The notes beneath the pieces were generated by a model, which saw nothing but the letters and a program-made list of their open reading frames with translations, made no database searches and had not been told where the DNA came from. Positions 16,901-39,533 of a stretch of 64,000 bases of DNA are shown piece after piece. The position numbers and the translations under genes were made by a program. Within the stretch, counting starts at the first letter, position 1. The number at the start of each line of letters is the position of its first letter. The stretch covers positions 4,055,155 through 4,119,154 of the forward strand of contig JAUPFP010000013.1 of NCBI GenBank assembly GCA_036925085.1. The letters run 5' to 3'. This stretch comes from Brachycybe producta. Lineage: Eukaryota; Arthropoda; Diplopoda; Playtdesmida; Andrognathidae.

Positions 16901-19900
16901 AGAGAGAGAATTTTTATTTTGCGCAATGCACCAAATTGAAATCAATACAGAAAATTAATTCTAAAATATGCTTATGCTATTTTTTTTTTCTTCTTGCTAA
17001 GAAACCATTTTATTTATAATGTAAACCAGCAACATGTAATCAAAATAAGTACTGTTCTGATTGGTTAGTTAACAAAGTATTTCTTTTTTAGATTAAATTG
17101 TAGGCCCACGTTTTTTAAGAGGAAAAATGTAGAGAAACACTTTGACATTATATTTTGTGTCTATGGTAACGCTTGCTTGACCAGTAGCTAACCGTTTAAA
17201 CAGCTGTAATTTTGTTATTTGCCTGCTAGGCTACTACTACTGCTATTAGTACTACTACTGTAGTGTTATTTGCAATCTGAAAGATCATTCTTCTACCACA
17301 ATCAAAAATACACGAGTTCATATTTAATATACTAACATTTATATATTTCGCTGTATTACAACATTATGATATTAAAAAAATACCAGTTTAAAACAGTGAT
17401 TTTGTCAAGTTGGGAAAGATGTCTGCGAAAGATACTTTATTACAGGCAATTAGAAAACGGGATAAATAGACGTTTGCTCCGCCCTTTTTATGACGAACGG
17501 CAACTTCTAATTGGTTTGTTGTGTGGTTCGACGTTGAAAAGGGCGGAGAGCATGTGACGTCAGACTACACAACCAACCAATTAGAAGTTGCGTTCGTCAC
17601 AAAAAGGGCAGAACAAACGTCTGTTTATCCCGTCTTCTAATTGCCTGTTGCTTTATTAGAACTTTCAGAAGACTTGGTTGCGTTCCCACCCGGCCATCCC
17701 TTGCTGCTTACAACATTGCGCCCTCCAAACCCGGTGCCCCATAGTCGCCGGGGGGAGGCTGCATGTCCCCAGCTACCCCCTGGTAGAAACGTGCAACAAT
17801 GTATGCCAAAGGTGGCCAACTTCACTCACCAATAGCTTTTAGCTTTAAAAGCGTCCAAAACAATTATCAGAGTGACAAACTTACCCAGAACCTATAAGTG
17901 ATGGGAGCATGTAGAAAAAGTGACCCCGCAATTAAGTTTGCTTGAAAAAAAAAAAAGGAAGGTGAGTCAGAATTGAAGAGTGTCAGTCCATTTCTATGAG
18001 AGGAGGGCTAGTGGCGCCATCTAACACAGGAACAAACTAAATGATCTACTTGCATACTTAAATCTTCTTGAAAAAAAAGCCAAATGTGTTGATTAGATGC
18101 TCGCTTTCTTGAGAAGGGTAGATTATTTAGGTGGAGCTAGCATCATGGTTCTCGAACACAGCCCACATCTTGTTTCTGAATGCTACTTTTTTGTTTTTTA
18201 TTTACAGTTAATGGCTTTTATCTTTAGTTTCCGAATGCACCCAATGACAATGGAGAGAAATAGAGAAATTTGAAATGACATAATAATCATTTGGCATGAC
18301 TCAGGAGTAACCGTACATTTAATATAATCTATATTAAACACACATGGGTACATTTATGTAACGGTTAGCCATAAATTATAATATGTATTATTATAAATGG
18401 ACAGGTTTTGATATTGTTCCTTTGTTAATAAATGTTAATTTATCTTGATGAGAAACATTTTTGTTTGAAAAATGTCTCTGTCTTCTCTCTATGTGTATGC
18501 ATTTTATCCTCAGGTGACATTTGTTTAAATCCTTCATAACAACCATTAATCATTACATTATAATCGCATTAAGGCATTTTTTTTTGTTCGTGTTCTTCAT
18601 GCCGTGAATTGGCAAATATGTTGCAAAATTGAATGTAATATACGGACATGGATTATACAAGGGTGTCTCTAAAAAAATATTCATTTATTTACATTGTTAC
18701 ATGGTTGAAACCAGGGGCCTAATTACAGAGAGAAAAAAAAATCATAAAATTGTGACAGTCATACCTTATGATGTTACCTGCTTATGCATTACTATTTTAT
18801 GGCTATCATATTATTCTGTACATCAGTCAATATCAGTCATATGACCATATTTGTCATAATAATAATTTGGAACTTGCTGTTGTGTCTGTTACAAGGGTAC
18901 GGGGCCGCCAGAGCAGCAAAAGAACATTTAAAATCTAATTTATTTAATTAAATAATGAAGTATCCGTGTCCGAACAGCATATGCCGTACAAGTAAATTAT
19001 TTCTTTTTAAAAAAAATATATTATAATTATTATATAATATATATAAAATCCCAGGTCTGTGTGTTTGTGTGTGTGGAGTAACAAAAACCATTGAAGCACG
19101 TCGGAATTTATATAAATTTGAATAAATGAACCGTTTTTTTTCTCTCAAGGTCAACTATATGTTGAACTCTTCCTTTGGAAAGTGTAGAAGGGGGGAGAGA
19201 GAGAGGAAAGTGGGAGGGGATGAAGGGAAAAGGTTGGAAAGTGTAGAAGGGGAGAGAGATAGAAAAGTGGGAGGGGTGAGGGGAAAGTATAGGGGGAGAG
19301 AGAAACATGGAGGGGGGAAAAGTGGAAGGGGGGAAACTGAAATTGAAATGAAGTTAGTAAAAAAAGGAAAAAACGACGCGCATGCGCACAATTGCCTGTG
19401 AATTTTGCTCCCGTCATTTATGACGGGTTACCCCACTAGTATATATATATTAAGCCAGGTCTCTGTGTGTGTGTGTGATTAACGCTGTACAATTTATATA
19501 AATTTAAATGAATAAATGAACCGCTTTTTTTCTCAAGGTCGGATATGTTGCACACTCCCCATCCAAGAACCCCATGATATTAAATTGGAGAGGGGGAAAG
19601 GTTGGAAAGTGTAGAGGGGAGGAGAGAGAGAGAGAAACGTGGAGGGGGAACAAGTGGGAGGGGGTGACTGAAATTGAAATGAAAGGAGTAAAAAAGGAAC
19701 AAATGACGCGCATGCGCACACCAGAGAAAATTAAAAGCTCATTTTCTCTTTCAAATATAAAAAAGGGGTGCCCAGCATTAGAATTTCTTTTCCTCCGCCC
19801 TTTTATGAACGTCATCAATTTCTAATTTGTTTTTTACTTGGTCTGACATCATAAAAGGGCGGAGGAAAAGAAATTCTAATGCTGGGCACAATTGCCTGTG

Positions 19901-22900
19901 AATTTTGCTCCCGTCATTTATGACGGGTGGTTACCCCACTAGTTTATTATAATTAATAAAATGTAAACTTATATAATATTTAATCAAAAAAGATCAATAG
20001 ATAAAATAAATAATTTAAATCATAATTTATAACATTTTTCAATAGATCACTAATAAAAAATTAATTAATTAAAACTTGTAGAAAATAATTATGAGTGCCT
20101 CAGAGGTAAACTATGTTAAGTCACAAAACGTAAATTTTACAGGGGAGTCTTTTGAACGGTTTTCTCTCCATTGAAGTTAATAGGACGTAACACGGTATAC
20201 CATCATCTAGCGGCCAATGTGTAAAACGGTGGTTTTAACACTGTTTACCGCTGATAGAACGTGACAAGCTGATTCATAATGTAAAAAATCGTGGTTTTTT
20301 TAAGAACGTGACTTAATACAGTTTACCTCTGATGCACTGATATAATGTACTTTTTCAAATATTTATTTTATCTTAATTAAAATGTTTTATAAACAACCGG
20401 ACATGTTCAGCGTTTTAGGAGCAACAATAAGAAGAAATTGAAAGTTTGTTAGAAACTAGAATGGTATACCATTCTAGTTTCTAACAAACTTTCAATATAT
20501 ACTTTCAAACTGATATAAAAAGTTTATTTAAAAAAAATATCAACATGATAATATTCTTAAGTAATGGAGAATACCAATTGTAGTTTTCGAAAAAATACTT
20601 TCAAAAGTTTTTCTTCTGAAAGGCCAAAATAACTAGAGTTCAAATGGGAGTTTACACTTTAAAACCACATGTAAAAAAACGAAAACATGTTTCGTTAATG
20701 ACGTTGTTCTGGTAAATTGTCAGGTTTTTAGGTTTTCATCAGGGATCATTAGTGTAAAGAGAAGTGGCGATGTCTTCTTATAGAGGTGGATTTTTAATCC
20801 ATTACTGAATTTGCTGCTAAATTTTTAGCACTAATCTGCTTAGCAGTTTTGAGAGGATATAATGTTTTTATTTAGGCCTACTTGTAGGTCTTTTTTTTTC
20901 TTCTTCTTTCCACCTTAAATATCGATTGATTGATAATTGATGATCCTGTCAGCAGTTGTTGTTAAAGTGATGCAACTCTGCTATATTGCATTTGTTTACA
21001 CTTTCATACAATCATCTCATTCAATTCAATCTGTGTCTATAGTATAACAATACAAAAATGCAATTCTAACGTGTATTTTAATGTATAAAATATTTATAGA
21101 TAAATATATATACATAAGGAAGGGGGGGGGGGGAGGAGTGTTATCGTGAAAGAACTGCTGTTCTACTTTTTGATAAATATATTTCAGTCTGAAATCTTTT
21201 TTATTTAGAATTCACGAAAAGAGCTTATTTTTTTTATTATTTAGTAGTCTTGCACCTTAAATATACATATACTTTTAGACTAAACTGTTAAATCTGGCTT
21301 TAGAAGTAAATTTAAAGAAAATATACAATTTTAAATATACATTTTCAGTTATCAATTTTAATTAAATTGTTGACTTTGAAATTCTGGTTTTTAATAAAAA
21401 AAAAAACTGGCTTAAATCAACTAAGTGTGTTTATTTTGTATTGTTTTTTTGTGAAGAATTGACGATTTTTATTCTTTTACGTTATATTATGAAATTTATG
21501 ATGATGACATTGGTGTGATGATGTTCCTCTCCTGTTTTGTCTTCATATGAGTTCTTTTGTTTTAACTTGTGGTTTATGGATTTTGTGACTTGATCCATGA
21601 TAAGGAGACACATTTTTAATGTCTTCCATGTAATGATATACGTTTGTGTGGGGTTTCGATCGCATTTAGTAAAAATTAACTTATCTCGTATTCTGTGTGT
21701 CGCTTCACTTGATATGCTTACTTTCTACTTTTAACTTAATTATCATTCTTAATGACTAAAGTGTCGTTTTTTGGGGGGGAGGGGGAGAGGGGGAGGGACT
21801 CTACAATTTAATTGTCATTGACTGACTTGACTTTTTAGGGCATGTTTCATGTATAAAATATATGTAATATACATTTATTATCAAGAAAACACATAAATTT
21901 GGACTAGTTGAGTGAAGTTTTGAGCGTCTGAAAAGAAGCACTTTAAATATTAAACGTCAAGCAATTTTGAAAACAAATTTAAAACGTTTATCAGCAGATT
22001 CAGTAACCTTACATTTGCGTAGATGACGTTCTTGTTTTTTGTATGGTAATGTTTTTTTTAAGTTCCTCCTTGAAATGTTGTTTTCTTGCATTGCACTAAG
22101 AAGAAATTTGAGGGAAGTTTAGGCCCTACAAGTGCCCAGTGAGTGTGTTTATGCTCACGGCACAAAATCGATAGTTTCTTTTTAAAACTATCGCACATCA
22201 TTAGCTTGAAGCATAATTGTTCAAATTCAAATATCCTTCAGCACAATTTTGCTCTCCATCCGAATTACAAAAATTATTAATAAGTAATTATTGTAAAAAT
22301 ACAAAGATGATGAGGGAAGACTAATTGTAGGTCAATAAGTAACCTACACTTTCAGATAGCTATTTGGACTATTTGGAGAACTGTGGGTCACTCACTGACC
22401 TAAACGTTTAGATATGAACTGTGGGTCACTCAGTGACCTACACTTTTTAACGTTTTGAGGGTTGCGCCTCCCGGACCTTCTGCAACAAGCTTAATTTAAT
22501 CCAACCCCACCTAATCACTAATATAAAAAAAGTTCTAACGTGTAAGTCACTGAGTGACCTAAAGTTCTGAAGTGTAGGTCACCTAGTGACCTATTATTAG
22601 TCTGTTCCAAAAATTATTAAAAATTAAAAATAATATTTTCAAATTTCAATTAAAAGTTGCATCTGAAAAAAAAACTACTTTCACTTTATACACCTAAAAT
22701 TCAGATAAGTTTTGTTTAAAAAAACAGTGAAATTTAGCTCTTTTGTTTAGATTTAAAATTATCCTAATAAATTAATTTTCAAAGCTATATCGCGATACAG
22801 ATATTACATTTTGTATTGTCCAAGTTCAGTTTAAAAAAAAAATTTTGTTTGTTTTTTAATTATAATTATTAGGTTCTTCTGGTAAAGCCACCAAACGTGG

Positions 22901-23888: not shown

Positions 23889-26739
23889 AACAGTAATAAG
23901 TAATAAGAATGACAATAATAATAATAATACTGATACAAATAATTTTTTTTAATAAACTAAAAATGTCCGATAATAAGGGCCTGGAATTCCCATAGTGCCC
24001 AGAGGCCTCAACAGATACAGTGTAAACGTACCACTTGCAGTCATAATCCAGCCCCCTGATACGAGAACACACTAGAATCATTCCTAGCCTCAACCTCCAA
24101 CCCTCGTTGTTGTACGAAATTAATTCGTGCGAGATGTAATAACACCTTATGAAATGATAACGCATGTACACATAAATTTCTCTCTTGTGTGCAGTTAGAA
24201 TTTGACCGAAAAATTGTTCTGCATTTTCGTTTTAGATTAGGTAACCCCCTAGACTAGAATAAAGTTACTTCATATAATCGCTATGAAATATGGAAAACCA
24301 CCAATTTGCTAATAAACGTACTAAATTCGTAGTATTTTCAGGCAATGCACAGAACGCCTAAAGCAACAAACTAATTTAGATAATGTTGAACAAAGATTTC
24401 ATAATGTAGATGATATCTGACTTATTGTTTCTATAAATAAATTGCTTTAGAACTCCATGAATTTATTTAGATTATTATTATTGGGTTTGCACGCTGTTCA
24501 GTGAATCTGTAGAATGTTTGCTTTGCTTAATTGACTTTGCATAAATTTGCGTGTTTACATGTATTTATTTCTCGCATCTTTTCGCTTGAAATAACCCAAA
24601 AATATTTTACATCACAACAATGAATACACCTTTTACTCACTTTGAATATCAAATCATAAAAAACGTACAACTCTCCATAGTCCAATTTAATTTACAGTAG
24701 GACTAGGTAGTAGTTGAGGAAAACAATAGGTTTAAATTAGGAGGAGGGCTGATAGGAGTGTTGCCAGAGAAGATTGTGGAAGAGGAGGAGAGCGGCCTAA
24801 ATTCATTTAGCACTTGAACCTTCAACTTGAACCTTCAAAGGTTCAGAAGATTCAACTGCCAAGTTTCCTATCATGTTTTTATGGTTGTTTTAAAATAACT
24901 GCATTTTATGCAGATGATATTATTTTTTAAAATAGTTTCGTTATAAAAAGTTAATTTTGAAATATATCAACATAAAACTAATAAATTTTATTTAAAACGC
25001 AGAATAATCAGTGTGATCAGCTGTTCATAAAGCATGTTAGGATGTTTTTTGAACAGCTGATTTTTTTAAAATCTAGTTATTCTTGCCTTTTTAGTTGAAA
25101 TACTAATTATAAGGATAAACCTAAAAGTGTTTTAGTAAATAGAGTTAATAATATTCAAGTTGCCATCTTTCAAAATAAACTTTTTATAGACAAAAAATAA
25201 AAATATCTTCATTTTCGATCTCAAATAAAAAGCTTATATTGAAATGATAAGTCCAGGAGCGATCCTGGCTCGTTTATTTTTGTCTGGATTGGCAATAGAA
25301 CTTTGTACGATAGTACAGAGGGTTGACAGAGGTTTGACCTAGTTCTATCAACGGATGATGCCAATAATTTTGTCTTGGGTCTTGGGTTCTTTTTCCTCCC
25401 AGTCCCACCTCTTAATACAAAGAGAGCATCATGATAAGCCTCAGCATTAAGTCTATGGGGTTGTAACTTTTTTTTTGCATGTTTGTTTTTATGATGAGTG
25501 ATTCACTTTCTAATATTTTGATGACCACTGGTCAATCATGTTGATTGGCCAGTTTGGTTTTTACTTGTGTTTTTGCCCAATCAGAGGATTCTGAGAAAGT
25601 GTTCTCAGTATCCTTGTTTTGGGTATAAAAGGCCGTGTGTTTGTATGTAATAAGAGAAGTCTTGAAAGCACTTTTGTGACACAGAAATGATGTCCAAATT
25701 TGCTCAGAGATAATGAACAATGTAAATAAACTGTTACTATACTTAAAAAGTTGCAGAAGTCTTATTTTTATATTATTGAATAGAACAAAGAACTTGAACA
25801 TTTTTTCATCTAGAACTGCCAACCCAGGTGTAAACCTGGATCATCAATACTAGATGAGACGGACGAAGACTGCACGATCAACCAGCTTTTAATCGGGCAA
25901 AAGTCTGAGGAGTATGAGACAGCTAAAAGATCCTTTTGATTGTAAAGGTTCTTGTGAAAGAAACTTGTTAGGAAACGAGAGGGATTAATTTGTTCCCTTC
26001 CTCCCGAACCAGAATAGGATTAGTGGCCTAGCCAACCACTTTCTGACCGCTCGAAAGAGCACAAGGATACTTTTGGACAATTCTATTCACCCCCTGAAGG
26101 TGGTTCGTTACAATGTATTTAAAAATATCAAGATGAAAATATGTGCAACTGATTGAGGAGCTACCATTCTAGTTTCTAAAACACTTTTCACTTTCACTTT
26201 TTTCTGACAGACAGAATAACCAGATTACGAGGGTCTTTTACAATTTAATATCACTTTAGAGAAAAAAAATAATCTAGAATATGTTTTCTAAGATATTTTC
26301 CTATTTTATATTAATTTAATATGAAATTCACCTTAGCACATTTTTTTTAAAAAAAATCATGTCTGTATTTTATTATTATTTTTTATTCATTATTATTTTT
26401 TATTCATTATTATTATTGTTATTTATAGATGAATCTTTGACTTGTAACGTTTGCGATCGTTCTTTTACGAGCTCTCGACAATTGGCTGAACACCAACAAC
26501 GGAAACGTCATTTCGGTTGTTCCGTTTGCGATTCCATATTTCCAAATCTGACGACATTGGAATTACATAAGGAATCTTTGGAACATTGGTCGGACGATGA
26601 GGACGACGATGATAACGTACAAGGAGGAAGCGGTGGCGGCGGTGGTCGAGGAGGAAAACATTCGGTTGATGAAAGTGACGAAGATGATGATGATGATGAT
26701 GTTCGAAGTCCTACAGAAGAGTTGGAACGGCTTCTTTGA
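1373..26739 (+). CDS. acidic zinc-finger protein with a conserved N-terminal domain (multi-exon)
   Basis: Proposed exons are 1373-1898, 22873-23049 and 26429-26739. All junctions are phase 1 (GAAG/gttag, attag/G, TATG/gtatgt, tatag/A) and the join gives 337 aa ending at TGA. Residues 1-100 look like a folded domain with the signature NGAWFALNNTSLHVFRAL followed by GKCVRI. The middle is acidic and low-complexity (Asp/Glu runs near residues 143-155). The last exon encodes two C2H2 fingers (CNVCDRSF..., CSVCDSIF...), both CX2CX12HX5H. That spacing is typical of U1/matrin/JAZ-type fingers, which often bind RNA or double-stranded nucleic acid. The C-terminus is Gly- and Asp-rich. I recognise the N-terminal signature only as a widespread, poorly characterised family and give no symbol. 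Further small exons may lie in the 21 kb first intron. Molecular role is unknown; nucleic-acid binding is an inference from the fingers. Confidence 0.75.
1970..2700. repeat. two tandem copies of the dispersed AT-rich fold-back element
   Basis: Both copies carry arms with TTTAGAAACTAGAAGGGTAG and, inverted, CTGCCTTTCTAGTTTCTAAA, plus the inner GAAAGATATCAACAT motif. The first copy spans about 1975-2325 and the second about 2335-2690. They lie in the first intron of the zinc-finger gene. The outer ends resemble CGCCTCTCGAACTTTGA and its reverse complement. Confidence 0.7.
2936..3115. repeat. short inverted-repeat element (MITE-like)
   Basis: Begins GGGCGTTCACAGACGAACGAC and ends with CTGGAGTGGTCGGTTTGGGCG. 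Internal blocks (GTGGTC, CAACCACT, ACTTTTTGAAGT) pair with each other. It resembles the inverted-repeat elements at 26.9-27.1 and 37.4-38.2 kb only in general layout. Confidence 0.4.
3435..4460. repeat. repeat region bounded by GCAATGGAGG motifs with an alternating purine-pyrimidine core
   Basis: At 3439-3466 lies a perfect 28-bp palindrome centred on CTTAAG whose arms end in GCAATGGAGG. The motif AGCAATGGAGGTCTATAGG recurs at about 4436-4454. Between them, 4000-4395 is built from ACATGTG, GCGTACACATGCG, CATGCGCGCACATG and similar blocks, so purines and pyrimidines alternate for long runs. Near 4216-4280 this is interrupted by repeated CGTCAAAAATTTGGCGAACAT-type units. Several frames stay open here only because of the biased repeat. 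Confidence 0.65.
4812..4912. repeat. (TTC)n and (TTA)n microsatellites
   Basis: A TTC run at about 4816-4840 is followed by (TTA)n with occasional TAG variants. Confidence 0.85.
4960..6280. repeat. fold-back element split by a second long inverted repeat, followed by another fold-back copy
   Basis: The dispersed family appears at about 4960-5060 and resumes at about 5720-5920; a further copy lies at 5930-6260. The interrupting segment, 5060-5722, is its own inverted repeat. Its left arm contains CCCATAGGCCCGATGTTAA and its right arm TTAACATCGGGCCTATGGG; both also contain AGAAAAACGAT or its complement. Flanking CTTAAG/CTCTTAAG sequence on both sides fits insertion into the first element. Confidence 0.65.
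6285..7430. other. intronic stretch without recognisable features
   Basis: AT-rich sequence inside the first intron of the zinc-finger gene. I see only short homopolymer runs and no coding-like frame. Confidence 0.5.
7430..7490 (+). repeat. retroposon-like 3' tail
   Basis: The motif TGCCATAGGCC...CTGCTTGCAGAGTA, followed by a TTGTAATTG-type tail, recurs at 13550-13600 and in diverged form at 45550-45615. A conserved 3' block followed by a simple-repeat tail is how LINE or SINE ends usually look. Family not identified. Confidence 0.35.
7498..7695. mobile_element. MITE, ACAGGCA terminal-inverted-repeat family
   Basis: About 195 bp. The left end ACAGGCATCTGGGGACAGCT pairs with the right end AGCTGTCTACAGATGTCTGT. 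The interior shares CGCCTTTTTATGAGCGTCAT, TTTCTAATTGG and the CCCGCCC block with the elements at 17.44-17.66 and 37.62-37.82 kb and with the 3' half of the Helitron-like elements. Non-coding. Confidence 0.7.
7700..8920. other. intronic stretch without recognisable features
   Basis: AT-rich first-intron sequence of the zinc-finger gene. Short reading frames here have no domain character. Confidence 0.5.
8925..9230. repeat. dispersed AT-rich fold-back element
   Basis: Left arm with AAACTAGAAAGGTAACTCAA and TGTTGATATCTTTCA; right arm with ATATCAACATAAAA and CGTTCTAGTTTCTAAAACAC. Same family as at 1.97 kb. Confidence 0.65.
9378..9868. repeat. GGATGAAC fold-back element with a telomere-like centre
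   Basis: The left arm carries about eight spaced GGATGAAC motifs; the right arm carries the complement, GTTCATCC. Outer parts share CCAATGTTCATCC and GTAACTCTAAAACCCGACAC or complements. The centre (about 9600-9655) is TTAGGTTAGGTTAGG followed by CCTAACCTAACC. A second copy is at 37425-37925. Confidence 0.75.
10678..10983 (-). CDS. possible minus-strand 3'-terminal exon nested in the zinc-finger intron
   Basis: On the minus strand an open frame runs from 10949 to a TGA at 10731. It reads like a real acidic/lysine-rich C-terminus (...VKVEDEFNEIGFELSF... ending KKAKKKPRTLLR). A splice acceptor TGTCAG lies at its 5' edge and AATAAA lies at 10683-10678, about 48 nt after the stop. No partner exon was identified, and the frame is short. 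On the plus strand the same interval could be a phase-compatible exon of the zinc-finger gene (10718-10993), but that translation is hydrophobic and looks less natural. Either call is tentative. Confidence 0.25.
11104..11330. repeat. tandem TGCGCC-containing repeat
   Basis: About 90-bp diverged units, each with TAGTTATTTTTGCGCC followed by CTTATTTC(A/T)G(C/G) and a second GCGCC. At least three units. Confidence 0.5.
11530..11650. repeat. short inverted repeat (hairpin)
   Basis: TTTTATGTATTCGGCTATAAC at 11540 pairs with GTTGTAGCTGAATACATAAAA ending near 11600; further AT-rich pairing extends outwards. Confidence 0.55.
11690..12500. repeat. diverged copies of the dispersed fold-back family
   Basis: 11740-11965 has both arms (GAAACTAGAAGAGCAGCTCAA, then TAAGATATCAATGTGAAAAT). 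12300-12500 retains one recognisable arm (AACTAGAGAAGAAAAATCAA). Boundaries are approximate. Confidence 0.45.
12668..12998. repeat. inverted-repeat element with TGTGGCCCAAG arms
   Basis: The left arm has AAGCAAATGTTTCTCAATTT and GTGGCCCAAGTGCCAATTG. The right arm has CAATTGGCTCTTGGGCCAC and AAACGTTTGCTTGA. An inner pair TTAGAGGCTAG / CTAGCCTCCAACC forms a second stem. Copies lie at 49848-50158 and 59811-60062. Confidence 0.7.
13075..13430. repeat. diverged dispersed fold-back element
   Basis: Left arm AGGAAACTGGAAGAGTTAAT with ATATCTTTCAAATTAAACG; right arm ACCCTTCTAGTTTCTAATAAG. Same family as at 1.97 kb. Confidence 0.5.
13690..14243 (-). mobile_element. non-autonomous Helitron-like element
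   Basis: Read on the minus strand, the 3' end (low coordinate) has a diverged hairpin based on TCATTTATGACGGG, a short spacer and a terminal CTAG abutting T, as expected for Helitron 3' ends (CTRR, insertion between A and T). The 5' end is TATATATATTAAGCCAGGTC followed by a GT run. The interior shares a GA/CT-rich block and GCATGCGCGTCGTTTGTTCC with the copies at 19 and 38 kb, and carries an ACAGGCA-type inverted repeat (13734-13876). No Rep/helicase ORF. Confidence 0.65.
14280..14640. repeat. dispersed AT-rich fold-back element
   Basis: Left arm AGAAACTAGATGGGTAGCAC and TGTTGACATCTTTCA; right arm GAAAGATGTCCACATGAAAA and CTTCTAGTTTCTAA. The outer end reads TAATTAAGAGTTCGAGG. Confidence 0.6.
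15295..15682. repeat. inverted-repeat element rich in ATCGGCT/CGGTT motifs
   Basis: Terminal inverted repeat AGGCTGTACC / GGTACAGCCT (15297 and 15673). Internal repeats of GATCGGC, ATCGGCTCGG and GATAATCGGC give a strong fold-back. About 385 bp, non-coding. Probably a MITE; superfamily not determined. Confidence 0.6.
15700..16090. repeat. pair of short inverted repeats with CCTCAAAGC...GTTCTGAGG arms
   Basis: 15722-15795 (AACCCTCAAAGCTCAGTTCC pairs with GGGAACAACTGTTCTGAGGG) and 15970-16070 (GAATCCTCAAAGCAGAGTTC pairs with GGAACCCTGTTTTGAGGACT) are similar hairpins about 250 bp apart. Confidence 0.5.
16170..16620. repeat. diverged copies of the dispersed fold-back family
   Basis: Arms at 16185-16250 and 16440-16570, the latter with GAAAGATATTAACA, TGATTGAGCTGCCTTTCTAG and TTTCTAAAAGAC. 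Confidence 0.5.
17440..17656. mobile_element. MITE, ACAGGCA terminal-inverted-repeat family
   Basis: Ends ACAGGCAATTAGAAAACGGG / CCCGTCTTCTAATTGCCTGT. The inner stem includes AGACGTTTGCTCCGCCCTTT and ACGGCAACTTCTAATTGG with their complements; the centre holds TGACGTCA. Nearly complete fold-back of about 215 bp, close to the copy at 37616-37823. Confidence 0.75.
17660..17810. other. GC-rich island in AT-rich intron
   Basis: About 150 bp with markedly higher GC than the surroundings (CCCACCCGGCC, CGCCGGGGGGAGGC, CTACCCCCTGG). Open in more than one frame but without a recognisable protein. Perhaps the remnant of a different repeat; nature unknown. Confidence 0.3.
17840..19030. other. intronic stretch without recognisable features
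   Basis: AT-rich first-intron sequence. The short frame at 18629-18844 has no domain character and I do not call it a gene. Confidence 0.45.
19033..19439 (+). mobile_element. non-autonomous Helitron-like element, first of a tandem pair
   Basis: The 3' end is textbook: CCCGTCATTTATGACGGG hairpin (19410-19427), an 8-nt spacer, CTAG (19436-19439), then T. The 5' end lies in ATATAAAATCCCAGGTCTGTGTG. The body has a GGGGAGAGAG-rich block and GCGCATGCGCACAATTGCCTG, with most of the ACAGGCA-type inverted repeat deleted. No coding capacity. The next copy starts immediately at 19440. Confidence 0.7.
19440..19942 (+). mobile_element. non-autonomous Helitron-like element, second of a tandem pair
   Basis: Starts TATATATATATTAAGCCAGG directly after the CTAG of the preceding copy and ends with the TCATTTATGACGGG hairpin, TTACCCCA and CTAG (19939-19942). 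Contains the complete inner inverted repeat (about 19768-19898: GTGCCCAGCATTAGAATTTC and its complement) and the GA-rich block. No replicase ORF. Confidence 0.7.
20370..20660. repeat. dispersed fold-back copies forming a 60-bp perfect palindrome
   Basis: 20437-20496 is a perfect palindrome centred on GGTATACC, made of the GAAAGTTTGTTAGAAACTAG arm and its exact complement. A further half copy follows with AAATATCAACATGATAATA. The outer ends resemble other family members. Confidence 0.75.
20665..22330. other. intronic stretch without recognisable genes
   Basis: AT-rich first-intron sequence of the zinc-finger gene with a poly-G run near 21123-21134 and a GGGGGAGGGGGAGAGGGGGAGG tract near 21772-21796. 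Nothing coding seen. Confidence 0.45.
22336..22605. repeat. repeat with GGTCACTNAGTGACC palindromes
   Basis: Several copies of GGTCACT(C/G)A(C/G)TGACCTA flank a shared core (GTTGCGCCTCCCGGACC, CAACAAGCTTAATTTAA, CCCACCTAATCAC). A related copy is at 27188-27580 and a core fragment at 37555-37610. Confidence 0.6.
23646..23935. repeat. (AAT)n microsatellite, imperfect
   Basis: Long ATA/AAT trinucleotide tract with interruptions (ACAATAATA). Frames through it on the minus strand (Tyr/Leu/Ile-rich) are repeat artefacts. Confidence 0.9.
24880..25239. repeat. fold-back elements interrupted by a solo LTR
   Basis: Contains an inverted repeat around GATCAGCTGTTCATAAAGCA / TGTTTTTTGAACAGCTGAT (25013-25062) and a fold-back arm ending ...AAAAAGCTTATATT, into which the solo LTR is inserted. 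The partner arm resumes at 26116 (ATTTAAAAATATCAAGATGAAAAT ... ACCATTCTAGTTTCTAAAAC) and runs to about 26230. Confidence 0.6.
25240..26112 (+). mobile_element. solo LTR of the 29-kb retroelement family
   Basis: Starts TGAAATGATAAGTCCAGGAG and ends GTGGTTCGTTACA, matching along its length the LTRs at 29075 and 33856 but with many differences and slightly shorter (873 bp). Flanks ATAT on the left and ATGT on the right fit a decayed 4-bp target duplication. A TATA box (TATAAAAG, 25624-25631) follows a CCAATCAGAG motif, as in the full element. No internal region is present, as expected after LTR-LTR recombination. Confidence 0.85.
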
Positions 26740-29070: not shown

Positions 29071-29074
29071 ATAT

Positions 29075-29971
29075 TGAAACGATACGTCCAGGAGCGATCC
29101 TGGCTCGTTTAGTTATTTTTGGATCGTTTGTTATTTTTAGAGTGGCCTGGAACTTTGTCAACCCTCTGTACTCACGTACAGAGGATTGACCCAGTTCCAT
29201 CAGCTGATGACGATGCCAATATCCTGTCTTGGGTCTTGGGTCCCTTTTTCCTCCCAGTCCCACCCCTTAATACAAAGAGATCGACTTGATAAGCCTCAGC
29301 ATTGGGTCTATGGGGTGAAAACTTTCTTTTGTAATTTAGTTTTGATTACGATGAATCACTTTTCTATATTTTAGTGACCACTGGTCAATCATGTTGATTG
29401 GCCAGTTTGGTTTTTAAGTTTGATTTTGCCCAATCAGAGAATACTGAGAAAGTGTTCTCAGTATCCTCTTTTTGGGTATAAATAACCATGTATTTTTGTG
29501 TAAAAGGAGACTTGAAGAAGCAGTCTTGAAAGCATTCTTTGGACACAGACATTATGCCCAAATTTGCCTAGAGATGATGAGAAAAAATAAACCGGAAATT
29601 ATAGTTAAAAAGTTGTTGAAGTTATTTTTATCTTTTAAAAACAAAACGAAGGACTTCAACATTTTGTCATCTAGCACTGTCAACCCAGGTGTAAACCTGG
29701 CTCTCCAGTACTAGATGAGACTTCTGAAGACAGCACGATCAACCAGCTTTTTACGGGCGAAAGCCCGGGGAGTAGCAGACAACGAAAGATCCTTAAAACT
29801 GTAAAGGTTCTTGAAAGAGGAACTTGTGAGGAAACGTATGGGACTAATTTGTTCCCTTCCTCCCGAACCATAATAGAATTAGTGGCCTAGCCAACCACTT
29901 TCCGATCGCCCGAAAGAGCGCTACGATACTTTTTGATAATTCTATTAGGCCCCTGAATGTGGTTCGTTACA
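29075..29971 (+). repeat. 5' LTR (promoter of the retroelement)
   Basis: 897 bp, TG...CA ends. Contains CCAATCAGAG (about 29429), TATAAATA (29477-29484) and AATAAA (29586-29591). This gives a plausible U3-R-U5 order with transcription starting near 29505. Outside the element, the closest relative in the window is the solo LTR at 25240. Confidence 0.9.
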
Positions 29972-29975
29972 AATT

Positions 29976-29994
29976 TGGTGGAGGTGCGGGGTAG
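29976..29994 (+). promoter_or_regulatory. candidate tRNA primer-binding site
   Basis: TGGTGGAGGTGCGGGGTAG begins with the TGG complementary to a tRNA CCA end and lies 4 nt after the LTR end. The priming tRNA was not identified. Confidence 0.55.
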
Positions 29995-30072
29995 TTGAAT
30001 ACCTTGTTACTCCATAAGCTACAAAGATCGTGTTGAAAAGCACGCGGCATAGAGAAAACATCGACGTCAGAA

Positions 30073-31494
30073 ATGACCAGTCTACAGAAACTACTCAAGG
30101 ACTTGAGGGATCTCGAGAGACTGAGGGAAGAAAGACGTCGAAAGAAGAAGACTGCCGCGTTGAAGAAGATCGTAAAGAGGCAACGTACTCAACTGGAGGA
30201 GGCCAAGGACGAAACTAATATACTTCCACCGACTCCTGTTGCTGTCAAGCCTGAGGTACAGTCCAACGATGGAAGCAAGACGCCAGAACACGCCGCCATT
30301 GCCGACATCATTGGGAAACTGTCTAAAGAGAAACAAGATGAGTTGGTTCGTCAGATTATGGGCGACGAACGGAGCAGAGCGGGCTCAATCAACACTGAAT
30401 TGGAATCGATTGAACCCGGGCGAAAGCCCGGTCCGGATGAAACTACCAAATGGACACCGGACCTGGGACCTACGCCATACTCTGAGAGAAATTCGTTACA
30501 TCCTCTGCAGGGATTCTCGAAGTACGACGGTGATGACAACATCCTCCTTTACATAGAAGAATTTGAAGACATCGCTACGGCGCACGACTGGAACTCCCTG
30601 CAGAGATGCAGGCACTTCGCAGGGCTCTTGAGGAAGCATGCAATCAAATGGCTCGCACACTTCCGCTCTGCTTATGAGGGAAAAGAGATTACGTGGACGG
30701 CCATGAAGGAGGGAATCATTGCTGAATTCCTCCTACCTGACCAGAAGGTCCGCATGAGTCGAGAATTGGTGGAAAGGCGTCAGCAAGACCATGAAACTTT
30801 CAGAGTCTATGCTGAAAAATACGCCGAGATGTATCGAAGAATTCATCCACATGACGATGAATCGTTGCTGATAGCTACGCTCCGAAAGAGTCTGCTACCA
30901 GCACTAAGAAAACATTTGTATGGAGCACCAAAAGATCATTACCATGAGTTTGTGCGCTTCAGTACTCAAACTGAAGGGGAACTGGTGGATGAGAGAGAGT
31001 TGGTTTACAAAACATCAGCTGGGACTACAACCAAAGCGGGCGTAAGCCAGCCGAATCAAGGAAGTCAACCAAAACAGCAGAGTCAACCTAGAACTTCAAG
31101 CGGACAAGACAAGATGTCGAACCCGCCTGAAAAGGCTGACCAGGAATCGAAACAGACAAATGAGCATCAAAACAAGCAGAGGGCTCCTTGGCGAAATCAA
31201 TACCAAGGGCCGCTCACCTGTTACCGATGTGGGGAGGCGGGCCACATTGCACGTGCTTGCCCAAACCCCGGAAAACCAAGGACTGAACAAAGGAACGTTC
31301 CAACGGCCACATCGACCACTGTAAGCAGGATCGACAAACCGTTGGCAACGACGGCGACGAAGTTCTCAAATACTGTTGAGGTTTATGAAACTCACGTCCT
31401 GCCGAATGGTATGAGAATGGTGCCTGTCGATATCAATGGAGTGACACACTATTTTCATGAGGAAAATCTAACAGAAGAGGCTTTAAACTGCTAA
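30073..31494 (+). CDS. Gag polyprotein of the LTR retrotransposon
   Basis: 473 aa. The N-terminus (residues about 5-45) is a charged Leu/Arg/Lys-rich coiled-coil-like helix. The middle (about residues 155-300) has the character of a Retrotrans_gag capsid-like domain, with segments such as FSKYDGDDNILLYIEEFE, ITWTAMKEGIIAEFL and RQQDHETFRVYAEKYAEMY. A Gln/Ser-rich linker leads to a single CCHC zinc knuckle (CYRCGEAGHIARAC, about residue 384), the nucleic-acid-binding motif of nucleocapsids. Gag would assemble the particle that packages element RNA. The start is the first ATG after the primer-binding site region. The stop lies 3 nt after the TTTAAAC slippery heptamer, so part of the product may continue into the next frame. 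Confidence 0.9.
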   Translation: MTSLQKLLKDLRDLERLREERRRKKKTAALKKIVKRQRTQLEEAKDETNILPPTPVAVKPEVQSNDGSKTPEHAAIADIIGKLSKEKQDELVRQIMGDERSRAGSINTELESIEPGRKPGPDETTKWTPDLGPTPYSERNSLHPLQGFSKYDGDDNILLYIEEFEDIATAHDWNSLQRCRHFAGLLRKHAIKWLAHFRSAYEGKEITWTAMKEGIIAEFLLPDQKVRMSRELVERRQQDHETFRVYAEKYAEMYRRIHPHDDESLLIATLRKSLLPALRKHLYGAPKDHYHEFVRFSTQTEGELVDERELVYKTSAGTTTKAGVSQPNQGSQPKQQSQPRTSSGQDKMSNPPEKADQESKQTNEHQNKQRAPWRNQYQGPLTCYRCGEAGHIARACPNPGKPRTEQRNVPTATSTTVSRIDKPLATTATKFSNTVEVYETHVLPNGMRMVPVDINGVTHYFHEENLTEEALNC

Positions 31495-33106
31495 GGGCGC
31501 CACTCAGCCCCAAAGTAGTGACGCCCGAAGTAGTTGTGAATAAGGAAGAAGAAAACGATGTCATTTTGGAGAGACTTCAAGAGGTTCAGGCTGCTGATCA
31601 ACAAGAGGAAATTTCTGAGCAACCAAGGGTTATGTGCATCAAGGTCCGACAGGGAGGAAACAAGGCGGAGTCCAAAGGTCTGTGTCAATGGAAACGACAG
31701 CTAGAGACGTCCGAAAAATCCACAGCCCTGTGCCAAGATGATCGACATACGGCGGAAGCAACGATACAAAGGAGTTGGGGCACAGCAGAACAAGAAGAAT
31801 CAACAAGGCTGACATCTGGGAGAGTTGCAGTTGGAATCCGAAGTCAAACCATCCAAGGGGAAGGTCAACTAAAGAAACCACTGCAAAGTGGGAAAGCCAA
31901 GATGGATTTCGAGGTTAAACCCATGGTGAAGAAAATGCAGGTTGAAGCGAAATTTGGAGTAACTTCACCTGAAAAGGGTAACTTTGTGAGTGAAGGGTTT
32001 CAGACCATTTCCGGGAAAGGTCAGCAAACAGTGCCACTGCAAAGTGAGTTTACTATGGCATCCAAAAGGGATATCGTACCAAAGCTCGGTAATGATCAGG
32101 TGATGGCGAAATTTGGAGTACCCATCCCTGTGGAAAATGATCAGGTGATGGCGAAATTTGGAGTACCCATCCCTGTGGAAAAAGATCAGGTGATGGCGAA
32201 ATTTGGAGTACCCATCCCTGTGGAAAATGATCAGGTGATGGCGAAATTTGGAGTACCCATCCCTGTGGAACATGATCAGGTGATGGCGAAATTTGGAGTA
32301 CCCATCCCTGTGGAGCAGGTGGCGGTGAAATCTGGAGTAACCACCCCTGTGAAAATTGGAAATGAGGTGACGGTGAAATTTGGAGTAACCGCCATTGAGA
32401 AAAAAGAGTTTCAAGAAGAAACTGTGGATCTTCGAAGGAGAGGACTAATCTCAGTCAGGATTGACCGAAATAATCCTCATGAAGATGAGAGTAAAGAAGG
32501 CCTAGCTGAAATCACTGTCGACAAACAATCCAGTGAAATTTCGGAAGAAACTTCAGTGAAAAAGGAAAGAGAGGAAACACATGGGATGGCCAAAAATGTC
32601 TCTAAGAAAGAGACATCTACAGCTTCCCGTGTGCAAACACGTGTAGGACCTGCAATAGATGATAGAAAGCATCATTCAGGAGTGGAGAAAAAGAAATCCA
32701 GCGCTAAAACCATCTTAAAAGATGAATTAACGTCTGAATTGGATGTAGAAACGGCAAAAATTCAAATTTGCCGCTATACGGCGCGCCGCCTAGTGAGAGA
32801 AAAAGAGGAGAGAGAATTTTCTAAGGAGAAAAGCTCCTCCCACTTCCGGCCGGAAATTGAAAGTGAGAGCCCCACAGGATCACGTGAGAAGACGACCGCC
32901 ATTTTTGATGCCACTTCGAATCTTCATTCTGCGAAGAATAGACGCGATCGTCAATTCTTTAAGAAAAAGAAAGTGACAACCTCTAAATTGGATAAATTCG
33001 AAAAGAGGATGGCCGAGTCTGCCGATCAAGGAGTATCTGGAAGTGAGGAGACAGCAGAACCAGGAGCCAGGGACCAACAGGGCCATCTGGAACCGGATCA
33101 TTAGAA
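31461..33106 (+). CDS. second ORF of the LTR retrotransposon, unknown function, expressed as a Gag fusion
   Basis: Open in the frame -1 to Gag from 31461, with the stop just after 33104. There is no ATG near its beginning (31518 is GTG), which fits synthesis by frameshifting. About 540 codons, hydrophilic, Glu/Lys-rich. It includes five tandem 15-aa units (DQVMAKFGVPIPVEN, nucleotides 32094-32318) and diverged AKFGVT/VKFGVT units on both sides. I see no DTG/DSG protease, YxDD polymerase, RNase H or integrase signature. It occupies the place where pol normally lies. It may be a replacement of pol, an extended structural protein or a captured host sequence; none of these can be decided here. 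Confidence 0.8.
31482..31526 (+). promoter_or_regulatory. candidate -1 programmed ribosomal frameshift signal
   Basis: Slippery heptamer T TTA AAC (31482-31488) sits in the correct Gag register. A 6-nt spacer containing the Gag TAA follows, then a stem-loop: GGGCGCCACT (31495-31504) pairs with AGTGACGCCC (31517-31526) with one C-A mismatch and a 12-nt loop. The -1 frame is open from 31461 to 33104. Heptamer, register, spacing and structure all match known retroviral/retrotransposon signals. Confidence 0.75.
32094..32318 (+). repeat. five 45-bp tandem repeats inside retroelement ORF2
   Basis: Units start GATCAGGTGATGGCGAAATT and differ only near their last codon(s) (AAT, AAA, AAT, CAT and GAG/CAG). 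Unit length is a multiple of three, so the frame is kept. Confidence 0.95.
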
Positions 33107-33855
33107 ACGACCAGGACCGACAACGGATTGACGTGGACCAGTTCCGACCCACGCCGAAGAAACCGGAGGAACGGGATGCAGCGAGGAAGCGTATCATTTC
33201 ATTTATTGATAAATATTTTTAATTTTCGTTTTCTTGAGGGTTAAAAAGGGTTTTTAACTTGGGTATTTTAGTCAAAATTGTGGTCAAAAAAAGGGTTAAT
33301 TTAATGAACAAAATTATTTCTCTTTTAAGCGTTTTTTTTATTATTTAGTCAGATCTGCCTTAAAGATTAAAGAGGGGGGTTTTTCTTTTAAAATTGTTGT
33401 CTCTGTGGGCAGAGATGTGATAGCTAGGTCAAGCTTGGGAAAGGGGGGGTTGTGATTCCTTTTTAAATGTTTATTTTAAAGAAATTTTTATTTAACTCCT
33501 TGTTTTTATTTTGGGGAAGTTTTCGTTATTTTATGAAGAGTACTGAGATTAATTACAAATTTTGGGTGGAATATTCTAGTCGAATAAATTAAAATAGTAA
33601 TTGAGTAAAACGGAAATTTGAGGGTTGGGGGTTTGTCATCCTGTTGTGATCAAATCGAATAATGAAAACCTGTGATTTTTATTGTGATATTTTATTTTCA
33701 AATTCGAAAATTTTTTATCGTTTTTTTTGTATGCAAATTGTGATACAGTATTTTGTTTTTGGGTTTTGTAGACAACCTTTTTGCGGTGGCTTATCAAGGT
33801 CCCCTAAGTTATTTGACGTAAGTTCAGGGTGAACTTCCATCTTAGTTGGGGGGGG
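33105..33855 (+). other. non-coding 3' internal region of the retroelement
   Basis: AT-rich, T-rich sequence after ORF2 with no open frame of note, ending in the polypurine tract GTTGGGGGGGG that would prime plus-strand synthesis. Confidence 0.7.
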
Positions 33856-34751
33856 TGAAACGATACGTCCAGGAGCGATCCTGGCTCGTTTAGTTATTTT
33901 TGGATCGTTTGTTATTTTTAGAGTGGCCTGGAACTTTGTCAACCCTCTGTACTCACGTACAGAGGATTGACCCAGTTCCATCAGCTGATGACGATGCCAA
34001 TATCCTGTCTTGGGTCTTGGGTCCCTTTTTCCTCCCAGTCCCACCCCTTAATACAAAGAGATCGACTTGATAAGCCTCAGCATTGGGTCTATGGGGTGAA
34101 AACTTTCTTTTGTAATTTAGTTTTGATTACGATGAATCACTTTTCTATATTTTAGTGACCACTGGTCAATCATGTTGATTGGCCAGTTTGGTTTTTAAGT
34201 TTGATTTTGCCCAATCAGAGAATACTGAGAAAGTGTTCTCAGTATCCTCTTTTTGGGTATAAATAACCATGTATTTTTGTGTAAAAGGAGACTTGAAGAA
34301 GCAGTCTTGAAAGCATTCTTTGGACACAGACATTATGCCCAAATTTGCCTAGAGATGATGAGAAAAAATAAACCGGAAATTATAGTTAAAAAGTTGTTGA
34401 AGTTATTTTTATCTTTTAAAAACAAAACGAAGGACTTCAACATTTTGTCATTAGCACTGTCAACCCAGGTGTAAACCTGGCTCTCCAGTACTAGATGAGA
34501 CTTCTGAAGACAGCACGATCAACCAGCTTTTTACGGGCGAAAGCCCGGGGAGTAGCAGACAACGAAAGATCCTTAAAACTGTAAAGGTTCTTGAAAGAGG
34601 AACTTGTGAGGAAACGTATGGGACTAATTTGTTCCCTTCCTCCCGAACCATAATAGAATTAGTGGCCTAGCCAACCACTTTCCGATCGCCCGAAAGAGCG
34701 CTACGATACTTTTTGATAATTCTATTAGGCCCCTGAATGTGGTTCGTTACA
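33856..34751 (+). repeat. 3' LTR
   Basis: 896 bp, apparently identical to the 5' LTR apart from a missing C (GTCATTAGCAC here, GTCATCTAGCAC at 29667). Ends in TTACA followed by ATAT. Confidence 0.92.
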
Positions 34752-34759
34752 ATATTATG

Positions 34760-38616: not shown

Positions 38617-38657
<41 letters not shown>

Positions 38658-39073
38658 AGTAACAAAACCTTGAAGCACGTCGGAATTTATATAAATTTAA
38701 ATAAATGAAGAAATGAATAGCTTTTTTTTCTCTCAAGGTCAACTATATGTTGCACCCTTCCCATCCAAGAACCCCATGATATTAAATTGGAGAGGGGGAA
38801 AAGGTTGGAAAGTGTAGAAGGGGGGGAGAGAAACGTGGAGGGTGAAAAAGTGGGAGGGGATAATAGTAGCAAAATTAAACTACAGTTTATCACAGGCAAT
38901 TGTGCCCAGCATTAGAATTTCTTTTGCTCAGCTGTTTTATGAACGTCATCAATTTCTAATTGGTTTGTTACTTGGTCTGACGTCATAAAAGGGCGGAGGA
39001 AAAGAAATTCTAAGGCAGGACACAATTGCCCGTGAATTTGGCTCCCGTCATTTATGATTGGTTACCCCACTAG
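38590..39073 (+). mobile_element. non-autonomous Helitron-like element, first of a second tandem pair
   Basis: 5' end TATATATATAATATCTCAGG followed by a GT run, the GA-rich block and an inner inverted repeat (about 38892-39034: CACAGGCAATTGTGCCCAGC and complement). The 3' part has a decayed hairpin (CCCGTCATTTATGATTGG), TTACCCCA and CTAG (39070-39073). The next copy begins at 39074. Confidence 0.65.
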
Positions 39074-39533
39074 TACATATATATTAAGCCCTGTCTGTCT
39101 TTCCTTCCTTCCTTCCTTCCCTGTATGTGCAACGCTGTACAATTAAGGACAAAAACCTTGAAGCACGTCGGAATTTATATAAATTTAAATGTACCTGTTT
39201 TTTTCTCATGGTCAACTTTATGTTGCGCTCTCCCGATCCAAGAACCCAAACAATAGTAAGGACAGGCGGCAAGTAAAGACAATAAGATACAGATGTTTTC
39301 TCCGCCTCTTTTATGAGGATTGGCAACTTCTAATTGGTTTGTTTTGTGGTCTGACGTCATATGCCCCGCCCTTTTTAATTTCCAATTGGTTGATATTTGG
39401 TGTGACCGTCATAAAAGGGCGGGACAAACGACTGTATCTCCCTGTCAAAGCAAATTACTTCATGACAACCGGACAGTCACACAAAATTAAACTAGATGCT
39501 CCCGTCATTTATGACGGGGTTACCCCCCACTAG
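39074..39533 (+). mobile_element. non-autonomous Helitron-like element, second of a second tandem pair
   Basis: Starts TACATATATATTAAGCCCTG, carries (TTCC)n in place of the GT run and an inner inverted repeat around TTTTCTCCGCCTCTTTTATG. Ends with CCCGTCATTTATGACGGGG, TTACCCCCCA and CTAG (39530-39533). No coding capacity. Confidence 0.65.

What the first reader, a model, noticed from the sequence alone, without database searches (positions are those of the whole stretch)
31461..31530. Textbook -1 frameshift signal joins Gag to an unrelated second ORF
Seen directly: T TTA AAC in the Gag register at 31482-31488, a 6-nt spacer that contains the Gag stop, and a stem-loop 31495-31526 (5 + 4 base pairs around one C-A mismatch, 12-nt loop). 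The -1 frame is open from 31461 to 33104, and the downstream ORF lacks an early ATG. Known: TTTAAAC heptamers with a structure 5-9 nt downstream direct -1 frameshifting in many retroviruses and retroelements. Inference: the element makes a Gag-ORF2 fusion at a fixed ratio although the fused part is not Pol.
Basis: partly seen in the sequence, partly recalled or inferred. Interest (0 to 1): 0.85.

Follow-up and report, generated by a model that had tools for sequence, protein, structure and literature searches.

The report
Frameshift signal outliving its lost enzymes
A young mobile DNA element, and at least 65 related copies in the same genome, carry a signal predicted to make ribosomes slip from the shell protein into a second protein; that second protein is a leftover of the replication protein with its enzymes cut out in the element's own subfamilies, so those copies would need a complete relative, also present in the genome, to move.

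Summary
The signal is real: T TTA AAC at 31482-31488 in the Gag frame, a 6-nt spacer holding the Gag stop, and a 9-bp stem-loop at 31495-31526. All 66 loci examined keep the heptamer and 64 keep all nine pairs. From the codon after the variable spacer codon on, codons are frozen relative to a distant relative (12 of 12 same-residue codons identical; background 175 of 398). ORF2 is not unrelated to Pol. A complete Ty3/gypsy-type family C in the same genome has the same signal, the same primer-binding site and a -1 Pol with protease, RT, RNase H and integrase. ORF2 matches C Pol before the protease and after the integrase; the enzymes between are missing. Non-autonomous subfamilies A (window) and B carry this enzyme-less Pol. 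Longer copies keep a post-integrase tail under strong purifying selection; the window copy lost that tail too, by a deletion at a 6-nt microhomology. Short copies arose by two different deletions; the 8 with both flanks read have 4-bp target duplications. Frameshifting and mobilisation by C are inferred. In kind this is a -1 Gag-Pol signal in a non-autonomous LTR element; unusual is its retention, with a selected Pol tail, after the enzymes were lost.

The parts
29071..29074 (.). left target-site duplication ATAT (right copy at 34752-34755)
   Evidence: 16 of 16 other copies with both flanks read also have identical 4-bp flanks
29075..29971 (+). 5' LTR, TGAAACG...GTTACA, 897 bp
   Evidence: differs from the 3' LTR by one 1-nt indel
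29976..29996 (+). primer-binding site TGGTGGAGGTGCGGGGTAGTT, identical over 21 nt in family C
   Evidence: one C copy read; primer tRNA not identified (one search found no match to one tRNA-end pattern)
30073..31494 (+). Gag, 473 aa; Retrotrans_gag 30616-30870, CCHC zinc knuckle 31216-31266
   Evidence: open in 30 of 30 A loci, constrained among copies (62 synonymous, 44 nonsynonymous distinct variants, p 8.5e-16)
31482..31488 (+). slippery heptamer T TTA AAC
   Evidence: present in 66 of 66 loci
31489..31494 (+). 6-nt spacer with the Gag stop TAA
   Evidence: in 4 of 14 C loci the stop reads CAA and lies further on
31495..31526 (+). predicted stimulatory stem-loop, 5 + 4 bp with a C-A mismatch, 12-nt loop
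   Evidence: all nine pairs kept in 64 of 66 loci; synonymous freeze
31461..33104 (+). ORF2 in the -1 frame: Pol relic without protease, RT, RNase H and integrase
32091..32315 (+). five 45-nt (15-aa) repeats; copy number differs between copies; related repeats lie before the protease in C Pol
32469..33059 (+). part of ORF2 that aligns with C Pol downstream of the integrase
33054..33059 (+). GCAGAA microhomology at the scar of the second deletion (about 1.55 kb present in long A copies is missing)
33848..33855 (+). polypurine tract (8 G) before the 3' LTR
33856..34751 (+). 3' LTR, 896 bp

Best explanation
This is the -1 Gag-Pol frameshift signal of a Ty3/gypsy-type LTR retrotransposon lineage, kept by young copies whose Pol has lost protease, reverse transcriptase, RNase H and integrase, so that the predicted slip would make Gag fused to an enzyme-less Pol. 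Shown from sequence: the signal, its conservation in subfamilies A, B and the complete family C, the missing enzymes, the shared primer-binding site, the second deletion in the window copy, and 4-bp target duplications. Inferred: ribosomes on T TTA AAC, held up by the stem-loop, slip back one base in a minority of passes; Gag and the fusion co-assemble with Gag-Pol of C (or another helper); the helper's enzymes copy and insert A and B RNA, which offers the same primer site and similar LTR ends. In long copies the post-integrase Pol tail carried on the fusion does something useful to the element, since selection preserves it; the window copy has lost that tail and keeps the fusion probably as a remnant.
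For: Signal conserved in 66 of 66 loci though the sequence right after it differs between A, B and C. 12 of 12 same-residue codons from CTA onward identical A versus C, background 175 of 398. One C copy read in pieces: CCHC Gag, same heptamer and stem, -1 Pol with Asp protease, RVT_1, RT_RNaseH, Integrase_H2C2, rve; 21 listed C matches in open frames of 2,204-2,207 codons (capped list). A and B ORF2 align to C Pol before the protease and after the integrase and have no Pfam enzyme. 58 of 73 A and B Gag matches have the tail 2.8-3.3 kb after Gag, against 6.6 kb in the C copy. Tail constrained in ORF2 frame among 8 long A copies (47 syn, 26 nonsyn, p 2e-13; last part 11 and 6, p 4e-4; other frames not); A-B omega 0.11, last 220 codons 0.04. 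TSDs in 16 of 16.
Against: No frameshifting or mobilisation was measured. No compensatory base changes in the stem; the pair counts do not exceed shuffles (500 of 500 shuffles reach them). Stem energy is unremarkable in longer contexts. The retained ORF2 stretches 31500-32090 and 32340-32930 show no significant constraint among 29 A loci (p 0.17 and 0.20). The codon in the spacer (CTG/CTT/CTA) does vary. C is about half identical in protein and its LTR matches A only over 155 nt (72%), so a closer helper may exist. Two A loci run into N, and 3 of the 14 A Gag matches without a tail match were not read, so a complete A element is not excluded.
Confidence: 0.85

Rival explanations
1. ORF2 is a captured non-Pol gene and the signal was built or co-opted to fuse it to Gag.
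For: No Pfam enzyme in ORF2 of the window, of a long A copy or of B; the post-integrase tail matches no Pfam, NCBIfam or PDB sequence family.
Against: ORF2 aligns over both its ends with Pol of the complete family C (scores 205, 700 and 458 for B against shuffle maxima of 59-80; 188 and 174 for the window copy, shuffle maxima 79 and 65), in the same order and behind the same signal.
Confidence: 0.04
2. The signal is a neutral leftover in all enzyme-less copies: only Gag (made without frameshifting) and the RNA matter, and ORF2 stays open because the copies are young.
For: Retained N-terminal ORF2 stretches are not significantly constrained among A copies; 9 of 30 A loci lost the tail by two different deletions and still spread.
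Against: The tail is strongly constrained in its -1 frame among long A copies and between A and B, and that tail can be reached from Gag only by the frame change; synonymous freeze at the signal.
Confidence: 0.12
3. ORF2 is expressed by another route (splicing, internal start at ATG 31632, or reinitiation after the Gag stop), and the heptamer is incidental.
For: An ATG in the -1 frame exists at 31632; no transcript data were available.
Against: 66 of 66 loci keep the heptamer, including old copies with broken Gag, and the FKLLRAPL...KVVTPE stretch upstream of that ATG is conserved in A, B and C; 4 of 14 C loci moved the Gag stop but kept the heptamer.
Confidence: 0.06

Closest known systems
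-1 Gag-Pol frameshift sites of animal LTR retrotransposons (PMC5009743, sections 11 part 1 and 12 read, other passages seen: 28 of 51 surveyed animal elements have pol in the -1 frame; U_UUA_AAC among the shiftiest heptamers)
   Same: Heptamer, spacer, stem-loop, Gag to -1 Pol arrangement; family C is a plain example.
   Different: In A and B the -1 product has no enzyme.
Mouse IAP 1-delta-1 (PMC6466679, passages seen)
   Same: Internally deleted, non-autonomous, makes a Gag-Pol fusion that is reported to act in cis, spreads more than full-length copies.
   Different: There the deletion itself fuses the frames; here the frame change is kept and the deletion lies inside Pol.
Semi-autonomous RLG_Sabrina_SA and RLG_WHAM of wheat (PMC9744471, passages seen)
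   Same: Gypsy elements with Gag but no RT or integrase, co-evolving with an autonomous partner; shorter derivatives within the family.
   Different: They keep Gag and protease; A and B lost protease and keep the post-integrase tail, behind a -1 signal. The word frameshift does not occur in that paper's main text.
TR-GAG elements of plants (PMC8704663, passages seen)
   Same: Gag-encoding LTR elements that move without their own Pol.
   Different: A single Gag ORF; no second ORF or frameshift.
PNMA3/PNMA5 and PEG10 (PMC5009743, section 12 read)
   Same: Gag-derived genes with -1 frameshifting into a partial or non-Pol extension.
   Different: Immobile host genes; A and B are LTR elements with target duplications.

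Membership tests
Programmed -1 frameshift site | X XXY YYZ heptamer in the zero frame before the stop | tested here: met
Programmed -1 frameshift site | stable structure 5-9 nt downstream | tested here: met
   predicted only: 6-nt spacer, -14.0 kcal/mol, z -2.61 on 42 nt; weaker in longer contexts
Programmed -1 frameshift site | signal conserved beyond the coding need | tested here: met
   66 of 66 heptamers; 12 of 12 codons identical against 175 of 398; no covariation signal
Programmed -1 frameshift site | measured -1 product | not testable with these tools
   needs a reporter, ribosome profiling or peptides
Ty3/gypsy (Metaviridae-type) LTR retrotransposon | TG...CA LTRs, short target duplications, PBS and PPT | tested here: met
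   TSD 16 of 16 plus the window, 12 of the 16 being ATAT in AT-rich sites
Ty3/gypsy (Metaviridae-type) LTR retrotransposon | Gag with capsid and CCHC knuckle | tested here: met
   PF03732 and PF00098 above cut-off; Ty3_capsid below cut-off
Ty3/gypsy (Metaviridae-type) LTR retrotransposon | Pol with PR-RT-RH-IN in that order | tested here: not met
   absent from window ORF2, long A and B; met in one copy of family C. The window element is therefore a non-autonomous derivative, not a complete member
TR-GAG | single ORF, Gag only | tested here: not met
   second ORF of 527-548 codons from slip site or frame opening
IAP 1-delta-1-like Gag-Pol fusion | deletion joins Gag and Pol in one frame | tested here: not met
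   Gag stop and frame change kept
Domesticated Gag gene (PNMA or PEG10 type) | single-copy or immobile host gene without LTRs | tested here: not met
   near-identical LTRs, target duplications, many copies

The most novel reading that the evidence does not exclude
A long-lived parasitic retrotransposon lineage has turned Gag-Pol frameshifting into a way of mounting an enzyme-free Pol tail on its own particles: the post-integrase tail is an adaptor (for RNA choice, helper enzymes or chromatin) that the element needs in cis while it borrows every enzyme in trans, so that the frameshift is selected without any enzyme dose to set.
Probability: 0.35. Interest if true: 0.75.

Novelty: new variant of a known kind. 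Interest (0 to 1): 0.5.

Why it matters
Frameshift ratios in retroelements are usually explained by the dose of Pol enzymes relative to Gag. Here the signal persists, down to its synonymous positions, in subfamilies with no enzymes, together with a post-integrase Pol tail under strong selection. That separates the scaffold role of Gag-Pol from its catalytic roles and gives natural long, short and complete forms in one genome for testing it. It also shows stepwise decay of an LTR element (enzymes first, tail second, twice) while copies went on spreading.

Tried and rejected
Considered and dropped: ORF2 as a captured gene (C Pol alignment); the 220-codon frame overlapping the tail as the real gene (only the -1 frame shows constraint); a conserved pseudoknot partner for the loop (looked at by eye only; the downstream flanks differ between A, B and C; not tested systematically). 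Galactose mutarotase hit on ORF2 is below its cut-off. Led nowhere: protein database searches with Gag (7,997 candidates scored, none at E 0.001) and with the B tail (816 candidates, none at 0.01); Rfam; NCBIfam and PDB searches of the tail; single-sequence fold of Gag (pLDDT 44, not used); a tRNA-end pattern for the primer (no match; that the site resembles tRNA-Ala ends is recalled only). A single versus separate origin of the enzyme loss in A and B was not settled (linker alignment reached by 7 of 200 shuffles). Tail structure was not predicted, since loci from the fetch from genomes are not among the sources that the folding tool lists.

Biases: the 30 A loci L001-L030 were ranked by a query spanning the signal; B, C and older loci were not. 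L030 was dropped as a duplicate of L029. L050 was left out of the 13-row alignment (indel). Of 93 Gag matches (42 A, 31 B) were paired with tails; 20 older or partial ones were not.

Full report
Observation. T TTA AAC lies at 31482-31488 in the Gag register, the spacer TGCTAA contains the Gag stop, and a stem of 5 + 4 pairs around a C-A mismatch with a 12-nt loop follows at 31495-31526. The -1 frame is open from 31461 to 33104 with its first ATG at 31632. Alone, the site is moderately unlikely by chance: 728 of 20,000 composition-matched sequences had an in-phase slippery heptamer in such an overlap, 7 had TTTAAAC, and 8 had a heptamer with a fold at least as stable. The fold stands out on 42 nt (z -2.61, 2 of 200 shuffles) but not in longer contexts, and a different fold wins when upstream bases are included.

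The element. LTRs of 897 and 896 bp (29075-29971, 33856-34751) differ by one 1-nt indel, so the insertion is young. They run TGAAACG to GTTACA, are flanked by ATAT on both sides, and enclose a primer-binding site and a G8 polypurine tract. ORF1 is a Gag with Retrotrans_gag and a CCHC knuckle. ORF2 has no Pfam match above cut-off.

Copies in the genome. The window lies in an unnamed 295-Mb assembly. The first search scored 40 of 373 candidates. A Gag search scored 90 of 2,552 candidates and gave 93 matches, which I sort into A (window-like, 42), B (mostly 85-87% identical in Gag, 31) and 20 older or partial ones. Gag ends at the same stop behind the same heptamer in 30 of 30 A loci read. Over all 66 loci whose junction I read (33 A, 18 B or older, L050, 14 C), 66 have TTTAAAC, and 64 keep all nine pairs; L078 has one mismatch, and the old copy L050 has an indel. 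Among 13 distinct junctions, 116 of 117 pair cells are standard, against 22-67% when the partners are slid. But no pair changes on both sides and the shuffle control is reached 500 of 500 times, so there is no covariation evidence.

The complete relative. The tail of the long A copies matched, at 44-46% identity, a further family C in open frames of up to about 2,206 codons; a search with the C tail lists 21 matches in frames of 2,204-2,207 codons (capped list). I read one C copy in pieces: Gag with CCHC, then TTTAAAC and the same stem, then a -1 Pol with aspartyl protease, RVT_1, RT_RNaseH, Integrase_H2C2 and rve, and a long post-integrase region. Its primer-binding site is identical to the window's over 21 nt, its LTR ends are TGAGACG (read in the 3' LTR) and GTCACA, and a 155-nt part of its LTR is 72% identical to the A LTR. 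Thirteen more C junctions keep heptamer and stem, and the loop varies; 4 of the 14 moved the Gag stop downstream without changing the heptamer.

What ORF2 is. B ORF2 (994 codons) aligns with C Pol at its start (before the protease) and again over about 650 residues after the integrase, with nothing in between (scores 205, 700, 458; highest shuffles 75, 80, 59). The window's ORF2 does the same on both sides (188 and 174; highest shuffles 79 and 65). In 58 of 73 A and B Gag matches the tail ends 2.8-3.3 kb after Gag (28 of 42 A, 30 of 31 B), against 6.6 kb in the C copy read, so there is no room for the enzymes. Of the 14 A matches without a tail match, 9 are short copies, 2 run into N and 3 were not read. 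ORF2 is thus Pol without protease, RT, RNase H and integrase. The 15-aa repeats of A lie where C has related repeats before its protease.

The second deletion. Long A copies have about 1.55 kb that the window lacks. The window scar is a GCAGAA microhomology shared by 5 of the 9 short copies among 30 A loci; the other 4 share a different scar at CTGGAAG. All 8 short copies and 8 long copies with both flanks read have identical 4-bp flanks; 12 of the 16 are ATAT in AT-rich sites, and TTAT, ACAG, ATAG and ATTG are the informative ones. So tail-less copies arose twice and still inserted independently.

Selection. Counting each distinct variant once, Gag is strongly constrained among 29 A loci (62 synonymous, 44 nonsynonymous, p 8.5e-16). 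The tail region is constrained in the ORF2 frame among 8 long A copies (47 and 26, p 2.3e-13; last part 11 and 6, p 4.3e-4), and the other two frames are not. The parts of ORF2 that the window still has are not significantly constrained (7 and 14, p 0.17; 13 and 33, p 0.20). Pairwise omega gave 0.20 for Gag and 0.32 and 0.55 for these parts. Between one A and one B copy omega is 0.11 for the tail-containing part and 0.04 for its last 220 codons, with synonymous sites near saturation (dS above 1); it is 0.48 for the N-terminal part. At the signal itself, 12 of 12 same-residue codons from CTA onward are identical between A and C (13 of 13 A versus B), while elsewhere 175 of 398 are (A-C Gag and B-C ORF2 pooled); the codon bridging heptamer and spacer varies. 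Taking 0.44 per codon this has a chance of about 5e-5 (my arithmetic).

Mechanism. Most likely the signal does in A and B what it does in C: a minority of ribosomes slip into -1 and make Gag-Pol, here without enzymes. Enzymes would come from C or another helper in shared particles. Selection on the tail implies that the fusion is useful to long copies. The short copies, among them the window's, would get that function in trans or do without. None of these last steps was measured, and C is only the best helper candidate found.

Known relatives. -1 sites are common in animal LTR elements (PMC5009743). Enzyme-less or partly coding partners that lean on complete elements are known: IAP 1-delta-1 with a cis-acting fusion (PMC6466679, passages), wheat Sabrina and WHAM (PMC9744471, passages), TR-GAG (PMC8704663, passages). 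Six paper searches listed no enzyme-less Pol tail kept behind a -1 signal in a mobile LTR element; I saw listings and passages only, in an open-licence library, so this is weak evidence of absence. I rate it a new variant of a known kind.

Noticed in passing
window 25389-26112: A diverged copy of the element's LTR (about 86-87% in its better parts), apparently without the rest of the element: probably an old solo LTR.
   Followed up: no
L031 442-5441 (oriented) and L038 whole: Runs of N right after the A-type Gag and ORF2 start of two copies; gap or withheld, content unknown.
   Followed up: no
L093, L094, L096, L099: Four of 14 C copies read CAA in place of the Gag stop TAA just after the heptamer, so Gag ends a few codons later inside the stem; the heptamer is unchanged.
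   Followed up: partly
window 31560-31919: Start of ORF2 is unusually uniform among 30 A loci (5 variable columns in 360), partly beyond the query that selected the loci; recent exchange between copies or another constraint.
   Followed up: no
window 33104-33224: A short frame after the ORF2 stop stays open to about 33224, and the similarity to B also ends there; possible small ORF or conserved RNA.
   Followed up: no
L048 4120-5501 and L050: An old long-form copy (about 80% identical) lies some kilobases behind a young short copy.
   Followed up: partly
window 13689-14217, 19387-19962, 38634-39096: Several copies of a short interspersed repeat in both orientations (85-99% alike), probably a small DNA-transposon-like family.
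   Followed up: no
window 26359-26739: ORF with C2H2 zinc-finger-like motifs and an acidic stretch, perhaps a host exon.
   Followed up: no
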